In this document: piece by piece, positions 10,093 to 62,526 of the stretch | How the letters are laid out: each line of letters starts with the position of its first letter | How positions within the stretch are numbered: the first letter of the stretch is position 1 | Assembly (NCBI GenBank): GCA_023091735.1 | Contig: JALKBU010000068.1 | Location: 32,160-96,159, forward strand | DNA: 64,000 bases | Source of the DNA: Trichomonas tenax | Taxonomy: Eukaryota > Parabasalia > Trichomonadida > Trichomonadidae | Reading direction: 5' to 3' | Notes under the pieces: generated by a model | Seen by the model: the letters and a program-made list of their open reading frames with translations, nothing else | What the model was told of the DNA's origin: nothing | Databases searched by the model: none | Made by a program: the position numbers and the translations under genes

Positions 10093-10200
10093 TAAAATGT
10101 TGACAACTTTTGAGAGGAGGACTTCTACGCTTCGCTACGCTTCGCTACGCTTCGCTACGCTCGCCTCGAAGTCCTCCTCTCAAAAGTTGTCAACATTTTA
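10093..10200. repeat. Perfect 33 bp inverted repeat with 10-bp tandem repeats in the loop
   Basis: The arm at 10093-10125 (TAAAATGTTGACAACTTTTG...) is an exact reverse complement of 10168-10200. The 42-base loop is three copies of TACGCTTCGC plus a degenerate fourth (TACGCTCGCC). The GC-rich loop stands out in this AT-rich DNA. It could be a foldback element, or a stem-loop RNA if transcribed. Confidence 0.85.
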
Positions 10201-49626: not shown

Positions 49627-50310
49627 CTAACAAGAAGTTTCCCATTTGAAATCATTGAAGTCGAAATCATCGAAAGACTGAATGATCACTTGTGGCTTCG
49701 CATTCAATTTTTCTAAAACTCCCTTCGATTTTTCAACGTTATCTGTAAGAAATACCGATGACATTCCCGCAGCGTTAGCAGCGCTTATTCCGTGAAAAGC
49801 GTCTTCAAACACCAAAACGTTTTCTGGGTTAAAATCTCCGAGTTTTCCTGATGCTATTTGGAAAATCGTCGGATCTGGTTTAGTTTTTTCCACTTCGTCG
49901 CCGCAAACTGTTGTCTTAAATTTGCTGAAAAGTTCTTTGTGATTTGTAATTTTAATTTCGTGCGCTGATCTACAGCTGCTCGTAGCGACAGCCATAGGAA
50001 TTCCCATCTCATGGATTCTGTTGATTATTCTTTCGACGCCTTTCATCGTCTTCGCTGTCGGTAATAACGAATCTAATATTTCTAATCGCTTTTTGCAGAA
50101 ATCTTCAGGCGAAACATCCAACTTATAGTGCCATACCATCGCTCTCGCGACGTCTAAATCCGATCTTCCGTTGATCTCATCGACCAACGATTGTGGATAA
50201 GGAGGCGGCACTAATTTCGTCATTGCGACGTAGTACAGCGGGATAGTGTCAAGGACGGTGCCATCGTTGTCGAATATGACGGCTTTGATGACATGGCTCC
50301 ATTTACTCAT
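49627..50310 (-). CDS. HAD-superfamily phosphatase, HDHD1/pseudouridine-5'-phosphatase-like (227 aa)
   Basis: All four HAD motifs are present. Motif I is FDNDGTVLDT (nucleophile Asp14, acid Asp16), motif II VATSS (108-112), motif III Lys144 in KTKPDP and motif IV VFEDAFHGISAANAAGM (Glu169-Asp170). The helical cap between residues 20 and 90 and the overall length fit the HDHD1/GS1 group, cytosolic phosphatases of small phosphorylated metabolites such as pseudouridine-5'-phosphate or sugar phosphates. The exact substrate cannot be read from the sequence. The ATG at 50310 is the family start. A five-site TTACRTGNCA array lies at 50541-50622, upstream. Confidence 0.85.
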   Translation of the reverse strand: MSKWSHVIKAVIFDNDGTVLDTIPLYYVAMTKLVPPPYPQSLVDEINGRSDLDVARAMVWHYKLDVSPEDFCKKRLEILDSLLPTAKTMKGVERIINRIHEMGIPMAVATSSCRSAHEIKITNHKELFSKFKTTVCGDEVEKTKPDPTIFQIASGKLGDFNPENVLVFEDAFHGISAANAAGMSSVFLTDNVEKSKGVLEKLNAKPQVIIQSFDDFDFNDFKWETSC

Positions 50311-56638: not shown

Positions 56639-57700
56639 AATATTTTTGATTTTTCATGTAAATCTTTAAAAACCTTAATTTTATGATTTTTGTACTTCCC
56701 AAAGAGAGCTTAAACGAAATTTCTAGTTATTTTTGCTTTCAAGAAAATGAAAATTTTGTCATGTGTTATTTTACGTGCCATATTACAGTATTGAATACTT
56801 TATGTTGTCAGAAAATCATTAATTTTCTCTAAACTCCTTTAATATTGATCGAATCTAAAAACAGACATTATGTATTTTTTTCTTTAATTTCTGTTCTCAT
56901 GTTCTATATCGAGAAAACTCTTATTTACACCAATAAAATGCAGAAAATTAATTGATAAATTAGTTAATTTGGGAAATATAATTTTGATGAATAAAAATCC
57001 TAAGACATTCAATGTTTATTGGTTTACAATGCATAACCAAATTAGGCTATTTGATGTTCAAATGTTAAATTGATCGTTAATATATTTATTTGATGAAATA
57101 GTGAAAAATATGAACATTTTGTTGTTTCATGGAGTTCCAACCTTGCAAACATTTTTCACAGTATTTTATTTCATTTTGGGCTCAGTTATATCAATGTTCA
57201 GCTAATCTTCAGATAGAATCTTTTAAATTATATTTTGGATTGTGTTTTTTGTTTACCAATAGTAAAATTTCATGGTTCTACTTGTAGCCTTAATGATATG
57301 CAGTAAGAAATCATATGGTTTTCTATATGAAACAATATCATAGCCAAAATGTGGAAATCTGATCGTTTTTATTGATAGACACGATCCTATCCACAGAAAG
57401 GAAGGTATTTTCATCAGTAGAAAAGGCAGATTTGGGATATAGTCAAAAATCGAAAATCGACATCGAAATTCAACAAAAAACTGTGTGCAGTGCATTTTGA
57501 ATCATCAAATATCAACAATCACCAACCAAATAAATTTCGATATTCATTGTTTGTTCAGTAGTATAGTAGGTGGGTCACTTGTCACTCTAGATATAGAGGA
57601 TGTATTCCAACATATATATTTATAATGTAATTCCGGACATTAATTTTTAAGTTTATTTTTAAAATAATTTATTTTTTTATTTTGTCTAAAAATAATATAT
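56639..57700. other. Spacer with TTACRTGNCA-type sites near its left end
   Basis: TTTCATGTAA (56652), TGTCATGTGT (56757) and TTACGTGCCA (56771) lie upstream of the cyclase-like gene. The rest is AT-rich. The minus frame at 57253-57495 starts with ATG but has no domain, and I do not call it a gene. Confidence 0.45.
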
Positions 57701-58468
57701 ATGGCTATCGTTCCACCTGAGCTTATGAAGAAATGGGGAATTAAGCAATTAAAAGTTGATGAATTTTCAAACAAATCTAAGAACCCGAAGAGTTCAGACT
57801 CCTCGAGTCATGAAAACGTAAGAAAACAACCCTTCGAGAATGAGACCCAAGGGGTCAAAACTGATACAATTGAAGATTTAACATCTATTAAAACAGATCG
57901 TGGTCTAAATCCTGAATGGATTAAAGAACAATTTAAAAATGAAGATTGTGAATTAATAAATGAATATAAAGGATGTGAAAGTGAGCTTATTTATAGATGT
58001 AAAGGTAAAGACCCTTCAGGTCAAGGCTCAAGGAGCCAAATATTTTCAATTACGTGGCATAGATGGAATAAAGGTGAAAGACCTCATAAATGTGACTAAG
58101 ATGAAATAAAATCGTTGAAAATCCAAAAGAAAATGGTGTTTCTATATATTGCATCCGTAAAGTTCCAAAAAAGCGGAAGACGAATGAATAGAAGAATTTA
58201 TAATCCTGAATATATTAAAATGATATTCAAAAATGAAGATTGTGATGTATTAAATGCTGATGAATATTTAAACGTTAAAACGAAATTAAAATGTAAATAT
58301 ATTGGAAATGATGAAAGATGTAAAGATAAAGATAAAATTTATAGTGTATGTTTTAATAACTGGAAGTCATTAGGTATTAGAAAACATTTTAAAGAATATG
58401 GTAAATCAATACAATTCTTCAATGGTGAACATCAAACTGAAATCATTGATGAGGGTGATGGAGTGTAA
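57701..58468 (+). pseudogene. Two-module protein of mobile-element or giant-virus type, split by one stop
   Basis: The two open pieces (57701-58099 and 58115-58468) are in the same frame, separated only by a TAA at 58097-58099, so this is one reading frame of about 255 codons with a nonsense codon. Each half carries the same module: NPEWIKEQFKNEDCELINEY with LIYRCKGKD and ITWHRWNKGERPHKC, then NPEYIKMIFKNEDCDVLNAD with TKLKCKYIGND and VCFNNWKSLG. The K-hydrophobic-C...W-[NK]-x-G pattern resembles the short treble-clef-like modules of large DNA viruses and Maverick-type elements; this is a resemblance, not proof. A/T-ending codons set it apart from housekeeping genes. Host origin is also possible. 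Confidence 0.55.
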
Positions 58469-58508
58469 ACTCTGGTGCAACCCGTAGGGCAAAGTGCATG
58501 GAACTTCT

Positions 58509-58592
58509 TTAAGCTGAATTTAATACTGCAATTATTTGATTTATTCTATCTTCAATAATGTTTATTCTATTTGTTAAATCTTCTATTTTCAT
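58509..58592 (-). CDS. Very short helical ORF (about 27 aa), doubtful
   Basis: MKIEDLTNRINIIEDRINQI and a few more residues form a regular amphipathic coiled coil, starting at an ATG preceded by GAGTGACAGC. It may be the tail of the longer minus-strand frame (58799-58509) overlapping the ORF above. Listed because the coiled-coil periodicity is clear, but it may be chance. Confidence 0.2.
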   Translation of the reverse strand: MKIEDLTNRINIIEDRINQIIAVLNSA

Positions 58593-58986: not shown

Positions 58987-59150
58987 TATTTTGACACATA
59001 AAACTAGTGATTCTGACAACTTTACATGTCAGATAATGTCACTTTCTGTGTCACTTTTTCGTGACAACTTTCAGTGCGTGACATTGATTTGCATATATTA
59101 ATATTATAATTATCTCATACAATAAAATCATTGCGAAATCAATGACTTTT
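58987..59150. promoter_or_regulatory. Dense cluster of TGACA/TGTCAC motifs
   Basis: Within about 110 bases: TGACACATAA (58992), CTGACAACTT, TTACATGTCA (59022), ATGTCACTTT, GTGTCACTTTTTCGTGACAA and GCGTGACATT. These are mixtures of TTACRTGNCA and the AAAAGTGACA/TCACTTT elements on both strands. It lies between the AT-biased ORF and the hairpin cluster, so it could be the promoter of the latter. Confidence 0.5.
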
Positions 59151-59182
59151 ATTTAATTTTCTTATTTTCAAAATCAAATATC

Positions 59183-59267
59183 TTTGACAATTGACATGTT
59201 TCTTCTCCATATCGCCATCTGCATGTCTGCATTGGAGGAAATGGACAAGAAGCAGGTCAATTGTCAA
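59183..59267. ncRNA. Candidate small-RNA precursor hairpin 1 (85 nt)
   Basis: TTTGACAATTGAC on the left pairs perfectly with GTCAATTGTCAAA on the right. The stem continues inward through ACATGTTTCTTCTCC / GGACAAGAAGCAGG with scattered mismatches and a G.U pair, then CCA / TGG around a small loop. About 30 paired positions with single mismatches is the shape of a microRNA precursor. Transcription is not shown. Confidence 0.55.
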
Positions 59268-59281
59268 AAATAATCGATCTA

Positions 59282-59306
59282 GAAGTATAGTTAATCGCTA
59301 TACTTC
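59282..59306. ncRNA. Short perfect hairpin between candidates 1 and 3
   Basis: GAAGTATAG pairs perfectly with CTATACTTC around a 7-nt loop TTAATCG. Nine pairs are too few for a precursor; it may be a processing or transcription-termination structure. Confidence 0.4.
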
Positions 59307-59319
59307 ATTATGTAGGGTA

Positions 59320-59381
59320 TACCTCAAATATCTTGGCACTGTAGATGTAATTTTCGTGTTTGCTTGTGCCTGATGTAGGTA
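59320..59381. ncRNA. Candidate small-RNA precursor hairpin 3 (62 nt), weakest of the set
   Basis: Three helices alternate with small bulges: TACCT/AGGTA, ATATC/GATGT (one G.U) and GGCAC/GTGCC, around a 26-nt loop. Confidence 0.35.
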
Positions 59382-59393
59382 ATTTGCCAAAAA

Positions 59394-59501
59394 TTAATAA
59401 ATATCATCAAAAATGATCAATTTCTAGCACAAGCTCTCCAGAACATCTAATATATGGTGAAATTATGCCAGAAATTGATCATTTCTGACAATATTTATTA
59501 A
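59394..59501. ncRNA. Candidate small-RNA precursor hairpin 4 (108 nt)
   Basis: Two 36-nt arms pair with only four mismatches. TTAATAAATAT pairs with ATATTTATTAA, then TCA.AAATGATCAATTTCT pairs with AGAAATTGATCATTT.TGA, then GCA/TGC. The loop is about 36 nt. Confidence 0.6.
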
Positions 59502-59524
59502 CGGATATTTATAAATCATAAATC

Positions 59525-59599
59525 GCTTTGGCTGTCTAATGGCATGACAAACATGTGCCCACAAGCTATCTGTTTGTCATGCTATTAGACAGCTAAAGC
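59525..59599. ncRNA. Candidate small-RNA precursor hairpin 5 (75 nt)
   Basis: The 29-nt arms (59525-59553 and 59571-59599) pair over their whole length. The only two non-Watson-Crick positions are G.U pairs (GGC/GCT, TGG/CTA contexts). The loop is 17 nt. Preservation of pairing through G.U suggests selection on RNA. Confidence 0.65.
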
Positions 59600-59639
59600 A
59601 AGTATTGTAAATCGAAGAATGAAATATTTCGATTCATAG

Positions 59640-59710
59640 CATTTTCTACGAGTCTCTGAGATTGCTAGGCCATCATATGTCTTAGCAACCTCAGAGATCA
59701 GTAGAAAATG
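59640..59710. ncRNA. Candidate small-RNA precursor hairpin 6 (71 nt)
   Basis: The outer helix CATTTTCTAC/GTAGAAAATG is perfect and extends outside through ATTCA/TGAAT. After a small internal loop, TCTCTGAG/CTCAGAGA and TTGCTA/TAGCAA pair with one mismatch between them. The terminal loop is about 12 nt. Confidence 0.65.
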
Positions 59711-59767
59711 TTGAATTGTAAAATGAAATCGAATCAGAACGCTCTGAGCGAATTTTATAACGGCAGA

Positions 59768-59836
59768 CCACTAGTTCTTCACTGGCTAGAGGAATACCTT
59801 CATTGATATCCCTCCAAATCAGCGAAGAACTTGTAG
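59768..59836. ncRNA. Candidate small-RNA precursor hairpin 7 (69 nt)
   Basis: AGTTCTTC/GAAGAACT is perfect, then CTG/CAG. A more irregular helix follows (GAGGAATACC / GATATCCCTC with a bulge and G.U pairs), closed by a short loop. Confidence 0.55.
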
Positions 59837-59839
59837 AAA

Positions 59840-61199
59840 ACGCATTATCAATTTTAATAACGTACAAAGATTATCAAAATTATCAATTTTAGGAGAAAAA
59901 TGTTGAAATTTCCTCAAAAAATTAGTTTTGCCTATAATAACCTATATCAAAAATGAAGTTAATGTAGCAATTTAAAAATTAAACAAACATCAAAAAAGTA
60001 CGTATCTGCCTGTGTCTTTGTAGAAGTGTTCTAAAGAAAAAGTTATGTGTCCAAGTACCCAATTTTGATGTATAAATAACCGAGACTAAATCACTCTATA
60101 AATACATTATTTCTGGATTGTTGTTAGTAGTACTTCTCTTTTGAAAATGATAAAACTCTCTGTTCAGTGTTTAAATACAGCGAAAACTGTCCGCTAAAAT
60201 AAGGTTATCAATAATGGAGACTTTATTGCTTCATATCTCGGGATACTGTTTAGACTTGCGATCCATGCATACATTGTTCCTATATGCATATAGATGCTAT
60301 GCCCAAATTTTCATCCCAAAATGTTTTGAAAATAAAGAGTTCCACACCTTGTATGCATCCACTGAAATAAGCATATAAAACAAAAATTCCGACTGCTGAA
60401 TGCTCATTTTGTATATCCATATCGGATTATCTTATGAAAAACCAGCTGAACATTGAATAAATTGTTGATTTTCTATTTTTATTAACAAAACAATGTTGAG
60501 AGTTAGCAAGCTTACAGTTGGTATCTAAATTGCATAATACATTCGTAAGAGCTAACGTAGAAACATTTTAATTTTTGAAAAATTTTATTCCTCATAAATC
60601 AATGATTTTTATTGATAAAATAGATAAAACACATTAACTAAATGTGTTTTGTGCGCTTGTTTTGGCATAAATGTCCTTTACAGACTCTCACTTTTACATG
60701 CAAGTCTCGGCTTTTTTCAGCATATTTCGACCTTCTGTTTCTCAGGTAAATAATAGAAATTTGAAGATATCTCCTATGTACACCCCGATCCAAATAAAAT
60801 CTAGTTGTTAGCTCACAAAGAAAATCATGAAAATACCGATCAGGTAGGGCTGTGTGAAATAAGGTTAAAATTCATCAGAACTCGAATTTTGCAAATTTTT
60901 TTGAGTTGAAAAAAATTATGAAATTATCAAAATCTGATGCCGCAGACATCTAGCATATACATAGAAGTAGCATGGTATATAAATTTTTTATTCAAAATCA
61001 CGACAGGTTTCTCTAAACTTCCTGCAAAAGTAAAATTGCATCTCATAAGGTTATATTTTTGAATAGTTTACATCAAATGCAAGTCGGGCCTTAAATTAAA
61101 ATTTTATTTTACACATATATTATTTTTTAAGCTTATTTTTATACTTTTAATGTCACTTTTTGTATCAACCCCTGCTAAAAGTATCACTTTTTCGGAAAA
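59840..61199. other. AT-rich spacer, no gene seen
   Basis: About 1.3 kb with no credible frame. I see no hairpins comparable to those before 59840. Confidence 0.4.
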
Positions 61200-61202
61200 G
61201 TT

Positions 61203-61317
61203 TGGCCACTCGCCTTGATGCCCCGCTGGCGCGATGCATCAGGCCTTCGGCCTGTGACCAACCCAACAAAATCGCGCAATACAAAATATGTCCATTATTT
61301 TTTTTTTTTTTTTTTTT
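61203..61317. other. GC-rich island with hairpins, followed by T20
   Basis: About 80 bases (61203-61285) of GC-rich sequence stand in very AT-rich DNA. Two stems follow each other: GATGC/GCATC (61217-61221 / 61236-61240) and CAGGCC-TTC-GGCCTG (61240-61254). A run of about 20 T follows at 61298-61317. On the plus strand a structured segment plus a T-tract recalls a Pol III-type small RNA gene, but no A/B boxes are evident and no RNA family is recognised. Confidence 0.4.
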
Positions 61318-62526
61318 CTCCCTCTCCTTTTCTTCTCCTCTTTCCATTATTTTTATTAAAAAAGATTAATAATGAATTTAACACAATCATACAACTTTAA
61401 CAGCTGAATATTTATACGATAAACAATAAATTGATTTAGGAATGATTCTTTATTTCATTTTTAAATAAAATATAATTTTTCTTAAATAAATATTGCCATG
61501 GAATTCAGCGAGGTTTGTAGATGTTGTAGAGGATCACAACAATTGTATCAATTTTGTCGATGATATTAAGATAAATCGTTGATTCTCCAAGCATGTCAAC
61601 AAATCTAGTTAATTCTGGAGAGGATCTCATCGACGATGTAGATGTGGTTATCGACGTTCACTGGCGATGCGCAAGTACTAGTCGATTGTGTAGAGATGTT
61701 GTCGATGCTGAAAAGAGGCTCATCTATGCCGTAAGTACCTAGAAGATGCCGATCAATGATGAGAAGAGGCTCGCCGATGAAGTAATTGCTCATCGGCTAA
61801 ATGGAACAGCTCGTAGATGTAGAGTGGCTCGCAGATGCTGAGAAGAGTTGCCTGTAAATGATATAACTATATTATTATATCAATATTTATATTTCTGTAC
61901 ATTGCCATGAATTATTATATTATGAATACTATAGGATCCCCCAGAAATTGATCAATTTTCACGTCGAATAATAATTTCTTTCATTCGAATTATATTAATA
62001 GAAGACATCGAGAACTATTGAAGTCTTCATTTTGTACATAAGCATTAGCAAAATATCAGTTAACTCATCAATGAACTTCAAATAATTTGATTTTATTTAT
62101 TGGGTTAGGTCTGTTTAGATGACAGAAAACAATGCTCCTGAACAATGCAAATGCATATGCTTCCATAAATTAACTAGAATAATAATGCACGATAATAATA
62201 AAAAAAGTTAAAGAATGATCATAGCTGGTTTTGTAAGTATTGACCCTAACCGTTATGCCATATTTGTTACATAAAGTCAGATTTGAAATCAAATATATGA
62301 AAATTGTCCAATTTTGAAATCTCGAGAACTTAGGTTCACCACGCTTAGTCCTTAATAGGGTATATTCCCCATGCCATATGGAATACACCATATAAATTTT
62401 ATCGAAAAAAATTTGGAGGAAGGGAGAAGCCCTTTGAATATATAAAAAGTTTGTTTGGATGTAGGATAGAGTAAATACACTTTATAAAACAATACAAAAC
62501 ATTAGACCGCACGCATGAATGATAAA
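61318..62526. other. Spacer with a GATG-rich degenerate repeat
   Basis: From about 61620 to 61850 the words GATG, TCGTCGATG, AGAGGCTCATC, AGAGGCTCGCCGATGA and GCTCGCAGATG recur, so that minus-strand reading gives EPLLIID and EPLFSID. This looks like a degenerate tandem repeat; the frame (61605-61793 minus) is not convincing as a gene. The minus frame at 62170-62391 has an ATG but no domain. Nothing else seen. Confidence 0.4.

What the first reader, a model, noticed from the sequence alone, without database searches (positions are those of the whole stretch)
59183..59836. Cluster of six or seven imperfect hairpins resembling a polycistronic small-RNA precursor
Within 650 bases without coding capacity, hairpins of 62-108 nt follow each other with short linkers (59183, 59320, 59394, 59525, 59640, 59768, plus a short one at 59282). 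Arms are 25-36 nt with isolated mismatches and G.U pairs. In the hairpin at 59525 the only two non-Watson-Crick positions in 29 pairs are G.U, as if RNA pairing were selected. The arms differ in sequence, so this is not one repeat copied. A promoter-motif cluster lies just upstream at 58987-59150. Trichomonads are known to have Argonaute and small RNAs; a microRNA-like or other hairpin-processed cluster here is inference. Each hairpin could instead be a separate tiny inverted repeat.
Basis: partly seen in the sequence, partly recalled or inferred. Interest (0 to 1): 0.88.

Follow-up and report, generated by a model that had tools for sequence, protein, structure and literature searches.

The report
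Dispersed repeat carrying about eight hairpins
The hairpin cluster is real, but it is one copy of a non-coding repeat found at about a hundred places in this protist's genome, and its stems probably stay paired at least partly because DNA copying errors rewrite one arm from the other; whether it makes small RNAs is untested.

Summary
The hairpins exist at the stated coordinates and fold far better than shuffled sequence (0 of 200 shuffles each; z -3.6 to -10.7). They are not a single-locus gene. The array is one copy of a dispersed non-coding repeat: 80 distinct places from three capped searches, 108 with listed arm matches added. Most spanning copies hold one more, nearly perfect hairpin (H7), lost in the window copy. 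In 54 aligned copies pairing was kept through subfamily divergence: Watson-Crick 84.0% against 75-78% simulated at matched identity, 0 of 300 runs reaching it. Three results point to a DNA-level cause, template switching between arms: exact spacer inversions, one copy with complementary one-base deletions in both H7 arms, and no clear excess of G.U over A.C. The genome has one Piwi and one Dicer-like match, so hairpin-derived small RNAs are possible but unshown. In 5 of 6 hairpins the arms evolve alike; the target search is inconclusive. I read it as a hairpin-array repeat maintained partly by template switching, with the small-RNA reading as a live rival.

The parts
59083..59998 (+). Window copy of the dispersed repeat (left edge at about 59083; similarity to other copies reaches 59829-59998 where it goes past the H7 gap)
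   Evidence: blastn to 20 fetched copies; 158 matches in the own genome
59183..59268 (.). Hairpin H1
   Evidence: z -7.7 for 59167-59284; WC-to-WC double changes 3.1 against a mean of 0.5 (maximum 3) for re-paired columns
59282..59306 (.). Short hairpin h2
   Evidence: z -6.6 for 59280-59310; not tested for covariation
59316..59388 (.). Hairpin H3, weak; no covariation support
   Evidence: z -4.3; 0 double WC changes
59394..59501 (.). Hairpin H4, 47-nt arms 83% complementary
   Evidence: double WC changes 4.4 against 0.6 (maximum 3)
59525..59599 (.). Hairpin H5; arm found at 147 places (3 mismatches or fewer) against 0 for the reversed pattern
   Evidence: double WC changes 8.0 against 0.95 (maximum 5)
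59640..59710 (.). Hairpin H6; one copy (L059) has an inverted apical spacer
   Evidence: double WC changes 5.3 against 0.56 (maximum 5)
59750..59756 (.). Junction where about 120 bp with hairpin H7 (about 32-bp stem, z -12.8 in L010) are missing; GAATTT direct repeats flank the missing stretch in L010
   Evidence: H7 present in 32 of 35 copies that span the place
59770..59834 (.). Hairpin H8
   Evidence: z -3.6 for 59764-59836; double WC changes 2.4 against 0.22 (maximum 3)

Best explanation
The region is one copy of a dispersed, non-coding repeat family of a parabasalid genome. The repeat carries an ordered array of about eight imperfect-to-perfect hairpins and lies in intergenic DNA. Shown: the copies, the hairpin order in the aligned copies, pairing kept while the arms diverge, spacer inversions and one paired deletion. 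Inferred: the hairpins form in single-stranded DNA during replication; the polymerase switches template between the arms, which repairs mismatches, copies mutations and one-base deletions into the partner arm and sometimes flips the spacer; the repeat spreads as a non-autonomous passenger by an unidentified mechanism. RNA-level use may add to this but is not needed to explain the data.
For: Dispersed copies: 40 scored places in each, merged to 80 loci, 108 with listed arm matches; 147 against 0 arm matches. No stop-to-stop frame over 105 aa inside the shared stretches of L019 and L016; 0 of 21 copies overlap an ORF of 150 aa or more. Pairing maintained: 6248 of 7442 cells Watson-Crick (0.840, arm identity 0.812) against 0.781 and 0.748 simulated at identity 0.833 and 0.794; 52 pairs with Watson-Crick types changed on both sides against 21.8 and 29.2; 0 of 300 runs reach either. 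DNA-level marks: H7 spacer AGAATAGCT in 3 copies and its exact reverse complement in 3 others, H6 CCT in 25 and AGG in 1; complementary one-base deletion in both H7 arms of one copy only, against 44 and 39 copies keeping the two bases. No clear strand signature. Template switching is reported to homogenise arms and invert spacers (passages of PMC8794818 and PMC8604942).
Against: G.T losses exceed A.C losses in H5 and H6 (45:26 and 40:25), a post hoc subset that leans to plus-strand RNA; H8 leans the other way (8:18). The covariation excess alone is equally expected from selection on RNA. Hairpin by hairpin, only H4 and H5 exceed the maximum of 300 re-pairings; H1, H6, H7 and H8 overlap it. With a slower simulated clock (identity 0.853, above the observed 0.812) 24 of 300 runs reach the observed Watson-Crick fraction, though 0 reach the 52 both-side pairs. 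The pairs were chosen by RNAalifold on 34 of the same 54 rows, which favours the observed fraction. Clustering of double changes was only weakly raised (10.0 of 27 against 5.2, null maximum 15). There is one clear paired deletion; 15 other short-gap cells, in 11 hairpin-copy combinations, are one-sided. The H6 inversion is only 3 nt. Termini, target-site duplications and transposition machinery were not found; the larger repeats are mosaics.
Confidence: 0.6

Rival explanations
1. A mobile small-RNA precursor: the repeat is transcribed, the roughly 30-bp stems are cut by the Dicer-like enzyme and loaded into the single Argonaute, acting on other copies of the family or on genes.
For: One Piwi match (838-aa frame) and one 832-aa frame with two RNase III matches in the genome. 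H5-H7 copies folding below -40 kcal/mol have 27-36 pairs, near the 34-nt modal small RNAs reported for T. vaginalis (PMC7845603, section read). T. vaginalis transcribes many unannotated intergenic loci (PMC4223856, passages). Pairing is maintained. Weak plus-strand G.T lean in H5 and H6.
Against: No transcription data here. The arms evolve alike in 5 of 6 hairpins. No arm match has been shown to lie in a gene: of the H5, H6 and H7 sites most were not read, and the 4 extra H5 sites that were read are family members. No overall strand signature. The species is distant from T. vaginalis (47% identity for one protein).
Confidence: 0.25
2. The hairpins are structural parts of a non-coding RNA or single-stranded DNA intermediate that the element needs for its own replication or mobilisation; selection on that fold keeps the stems.
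For: The array is recognisable in diverged subfamilies; covariation; absence of coding capacity.
Against: Many copies are truncated at either end, and H7 is lost or partial in the window, L011 and L031, so no fixed functional unit is evident; no autonomous partner identified.
Confidence: 0.12
3. A chance nest of separate miniature inverted-repeat insertions.
For: Each hairpin by itself looks like a tiny inverted repeat.
Against: Matches run collinearly through the whole array in many copies (13 of 40 places besides the window itself cover query bases 1-2 to 573-574), so it is copied as one unit.
Confidence: 0.03

Closest known systems
Template-switch (quasi-palindrome) evolution of inverted repeats: yeast IRs (PMC8604942) and rRNA stems (PMC8794818)
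   Same: Arm homogenisation, spacer inversion and compensatory changes attributed to one DNA mechanism
   Different: Those are single loci or rRNA genes; here it acts on an array of long stems in a family of about a hundred dispersed copies
Repetitive hairpin-forming elements of sponge mitochondrial genomes (PMC2800124, passages)
   Same: Dispersed intergenic hairpin-forming repeats without known function
   Different: Those passages describe single, double or triple short hairpins in mitochondrial DNA; here about eight hairpins within about 800 bp of a 53-Mb assembly with ordinary protein genes
Polycistronic microRNA clusters, for example plant non-homologous clusters (PMC2812943, seen in listing only)
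   Same: Several dissimilar hairpins in a row in non-coding DNA
   Different: No RNA evidence, no clearly favoured arm, high copy number, DNA-level inversion marks
Transposable elements of trichomonads (MULEs, mariner, Maverick; PMC2725143 and PMC4021607 in listing, PMC7845603 passages)
   Same: Dispersed repeats of a parabasalid
   Different: No ORF; no terminal inverted repeat, target duplication or transposase link was found here

Membership tests
microRNA-type polycistronic cluster | Several thermodynamically stable hairpins in one non-coding stretch | tested here: met
microRNA-type polycistronic cluster | Transcribed precursor and discrete 5'-homogeneous mature reads | not testable with these tools
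   no RNA reads available
microRNA-type polycistronic cluster | Mature arm more conserved than the star arm | tested here: not met
   5' against 3' arm changes: p above 0.1 in 5 of 6 hairpins; H8 43:23, p 0.019, uncorrected
microRNA-type polycistronic cluster | Dicer and Argonaute in the host | tested here: met
   domain matches only
microRNA-type polycistronic cluster | Complementary targets outside the family | tested here: inconclusive
   H5, H6 and H7 arms only, 3 mismatches or fewer: 147, 52 and 2 places, reversed controls 0. Most sites were not read; the 4 extra H5 sites read are family members. The H7 pattern was the L010 form with its paired deletion, so one search missed the common form
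Template-switch-maintained quasi-palindromes | Arms stay complementary while sequence changes | tested here: met
Template-switch-maintained quasi-palindromes | Spacer inversion | tested here: met
   H7 3 against 3 copies, H6 1 copy (3 nt); none found in H1, H4, H5, H8
Template-switch-maintained quasi-palindromes | Complementary indels in both arms | tested here: met
   one case, L010 H7; no further paired gap of 3 nt or less relative to L010, 15 one-sided gap cells
Template-switch-maintained quasi-palindromes | No strand preference for G.U over A.C | tested here: inconclusive
   187:154, p 0.08, unpaired control 209:200; 65.0:58.9 internal and 139.0:111.8 terminal
Non-autonomous transposable element | Many dispersed copies without coding capacity | tested here: met
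Non-autonomous transposable element | Defined termini with inverted repeats or target-site duplications | tested here: inconclusive
   recurrent sharp edges, but the three copies of the 1,025-bp block whose ends were read share flanking sequence; no copy with both termini of the large repeat was read
MITE (each hairpin its own element) | Hairpins occur independently of each other | tested here: not met
   collinear matches through the array; many truncated copies exist

The most novel reading that the evidence does not exclude
A mobile hairpin array: a repeat that spreads a battery of about eight Dicer-sized stems through a parabasalid genome. DNA template switching keeps rewriting the stems into perfect duplexes, so the element continually renews a large, changing supply of hairpin small RNAs for the cell's single Argonaute.
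Probability: 0.17. Interest if true: 0.82.

Novelty: new variant of a known kind. Interest (0 to 1): 0.5.

Why it matters
Covariation in stems is usually taken as proof of a functional RNA. Here a family of about a hundred copies shows covariation together with spacer inversions and a paired deletion that mark DNA-level arm copying, and without a clear RNA strand signature. It is a natural test set for separating the two causes, and a concrete candidate locus family for hairpin-derived small RNAs in a lineage where their biogenesis is unresolved.

Tried and rejected
Rejected: a single-locus small-RNA gene; separate MITEs; a coding element, since no stop-to-stop frame over 105 aa lies inside the shared stretches of L019 and L016. 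None of three upstream window ORFs has a Pfam match. Rfam at gathering scores gave only an unrelated tRNA in L015, of three loci scanned (L009, L010, L015); the window itself was not scanned. One pattern in viral contigs and one in genome contigs found nothing; by their descriptions neither is a collection of protist genomes.

Errors and limits of mine. Fitch tie-breaking was alphabetical, which favours A and C and distorts directed A.C counts; one search repeats the counts with random ties (plus-strand pair set only). I still quote the loss counts 187:154 and the per-hairpin ratios and the arm totals, which share that tie rule. The re-pairing null is lenient, because re-paired columns are seldom Watson-Crick; one search is the stricter test. 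It starts from perfect hairpins but uses pairs chosen on the same data and a tree built from them. Searches crashed part-way (pairs without any Watson-Crick state); skips the one such pair of 177. The alignment is projected on L010, so insertions relative to L010 are dropped, including the H7 pair found later. The H7 arm pattern was therefore the rare form and found 2 places only.

Dropped before counting: L030, L032 and L066 (internal tandem duplications), leaving 54 of 57 rows, that is 54 of at least 80 known loci. H3 is left out of the totals. After one search failed, 19 copies were fetched with short flanks. Of 27 copies first listed, 6 were fetched, and of 13 first listed, 10 were fetched and one more (C603:250) lies in L024.

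Papers: PMC7845603 passages and one section; PMC7844918, PMC8794818, PMC8604942, PMC2800124 and PMC4223856 passages; PMC2812943, PMC2725143 and PMC4021607 listing only. Searches run. No listed title or abstract opening describes this repeat; I did not read every listed paper.

Full report
What was checked. The stretch 59167-59836 folds as described. Each hairpin was folded alone against 200 dinucleotide shuffles and none of the shuffles folded as well; z ranges from -3.6 (H8) and -4.3 (H3) to -10.7 (H5). There is no ATG ORF of 60 aa or more from 58987 to 61164.

It is a repeat. A DNA search of the own genome (53.4 Mb, 1528 contigs) with 59183-59836 scored 40 of 268 candidates and gave 40 distinct places, the window included, at 75-100% identity. 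Searches with two diverged copies gave 40 scored places each. Merging by contig and position gives 80 loci, and 108 when 28 further listed H5-arm places are added. The H5 arm occurs at 147 places (100 listed) with 3 mismatches or fewer, against 0 for the reversed pattern. Of the 28 added places I read 4; all 4 are family members, although in L069 the 5' arm no longer pairs well.

Shape of the repeat. The window copy begins at about 59083. Some copies run on upstream, in L019 and L016 for about 3 kb. In L019 this larger repeat holds six further inverted repeats besides H4, H5 and H7 and no stop-to-stop frame over 105 aa. Recurrent sharp edges exist: 9 of the 40 scored places begin at query base 7 or 8, and 9 of 40 end at base 612. 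The repeats are mosaics, however: the 1,025-bp block has alike flanks in the three copies whose ends I read. I could not define termini or target duplications. In 21 copies with flanks none overlaps an ORF of 150 aa or more.

An eighth hairpin. Most copies carry H7 between H6 and H8; in L010 it folds with z -12.8. It is present in 32 of 35 copies that span the place, partial in L011 and L031, and gone from the window copy. In L010 a GAATTT repeat flanks the stretch that the window lacks, as expected of slippage across a hairpin.

Pairing is maintained. I aligned 57 copies, dropped three with tandem duplications, and used 54. Watson-Crick double changes on one branch number about 27 in H1 and H4-H8, against about 4 for re-paired columns; H3 has none. 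Hairpin by hairpin only H4 and H5 exceed the maximum of 300 re-pairings. Co-occurring changes of any kind are 47 against 29 expected. A stricter test evolved perfectly paired hairpins neutrally along the same tree. At arm identity 0.833 and 0.794 (observed 0.812) the simulated Watson-Crick fraction is 0.781 and 0.748, the observed one 0.840 (6248 of 7442). Pairs with Watson-Crick types changed on both sides are 21.8 and 29.2 simulated, 52 observed. No run of 300 reached either value. With the slowest clock tried (identity 0.853) 24 of 300 runs reached the Watson-Crick fraction and none the 52 pairs. The pairs were chosen by RNAalifold on 34 of these rows, which helps the observed fraction. H7 is the fastest-evolving (arm identity 0.726) and still 81.7% paired.

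RNA or DNA? Selection on an RNA should tolerate G.U over A.C on the transcribed strand. In the pair set predicted on both strands, Watson-Crick pairs were lost to G.T 187 times and to A.C 154 times (p 0.08); unpaired columns gave 209:200. With random ties on the plus-strand pair set, internal branches gave 65.0:58.9 and terminal ones 139.0:111.8. H5 and H6 lean to G.T (45:26, 40:25), H4 is even (42:43) and H8 leans to A.C (8:18). This is at most a weak lean, not a signature. Arm conservation is alike in 5 of 6 hairpins; in H8 the 3' arm changed less (43:23, p 0.019).

DNA-level marks. The H7 spacer is AGAATAGCT in 3 copies and its exact reverse complement in 3 others; in H6, 25 copies have CCT and one has AGG. 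H1, H4, H5 and H8 show no inversion. A paired deletion gives a further mark: only the C751 copy (L010, L003) lacks one base in the 5' arm and the complementary base in the 3' arm of H7, at columns where 44 and 39 other copies have a base. No second paired gap was found, and 15 short-gap cells are one-sided. Arm homogenisation and spacer inversion are the two marks that PMC8604942 attributes to template switching, and PMC8794818 argues that the same mechanism can maintain RNA hairpins (passages read).

Small-RNA machinery. The genome has one Piwi match over the cut-off and one 832-aa frame with two RNase III matches. The nearest named relative of a window protein is from Histomonas meleagridis (58%), then Tritrichomonas foetus (50%) and T. 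vaginalis (47%, by alignment to the HAD-type protein at 49627-50310); two unnamed proteins are nearer (88% and 78%). The T. vaginalis 34-nt small RNAs (PMC7845603) are therefore only a distant guide. Their size is near the 27-36 pairs of H5-H7 copies that fold below -40 kcal/mol, which is suggestive and no more.

Judgement. Shown: a dispersed hairpin-array repeat with maintained pairing and DNA-level arm events. Inferred: template switching as the main cause of maintenance (confidence 0.6). The small-RNA precursor reading stays open at about 0.25.

Noticed in passing
window 10094-10199: A second, unrelated hairpin: 32-nt complementary arms around a spacer of repeated TACGCTTCGC units; the most stable 120-nt window in a 60-base-step scan of the whole 64 kb (-58.6 kcal/mol).
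   Followed up: no
window 57546-58581: A separate repeated element with short ORFs and no Pfam match; L027 carries a partial copy, about 80% identical, and the ORF at 57701-58099 has one 57% database hit without a name. It contains an imperfect 55-nt direct repeat.
   Followed up: partly
window 61200-61320: GC-richer patch with GGCCTTCGGCC and a long T run, to the right of the repeat.
   Followed up: no
L019 6324-7637: Six further inverted repeats (arms 20-49 nt) in the upstream part of the larger mosaic repeat.
   Followed up: partly
L014 2485-4444, minus strand: Pieces of a reverse-transcriptase-like frame (YADD motif, RT by recall) directly beside a hairpin-array copy.
   Followed up: no
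L015 3994-4065: A tRNA gene close to the left side of a hairpin-array copy.
   Followed up: no
L030, L032, L066: Copies that look internally duplicated in part of the hairpin array; set aside for the alignment.
   Followed up: no
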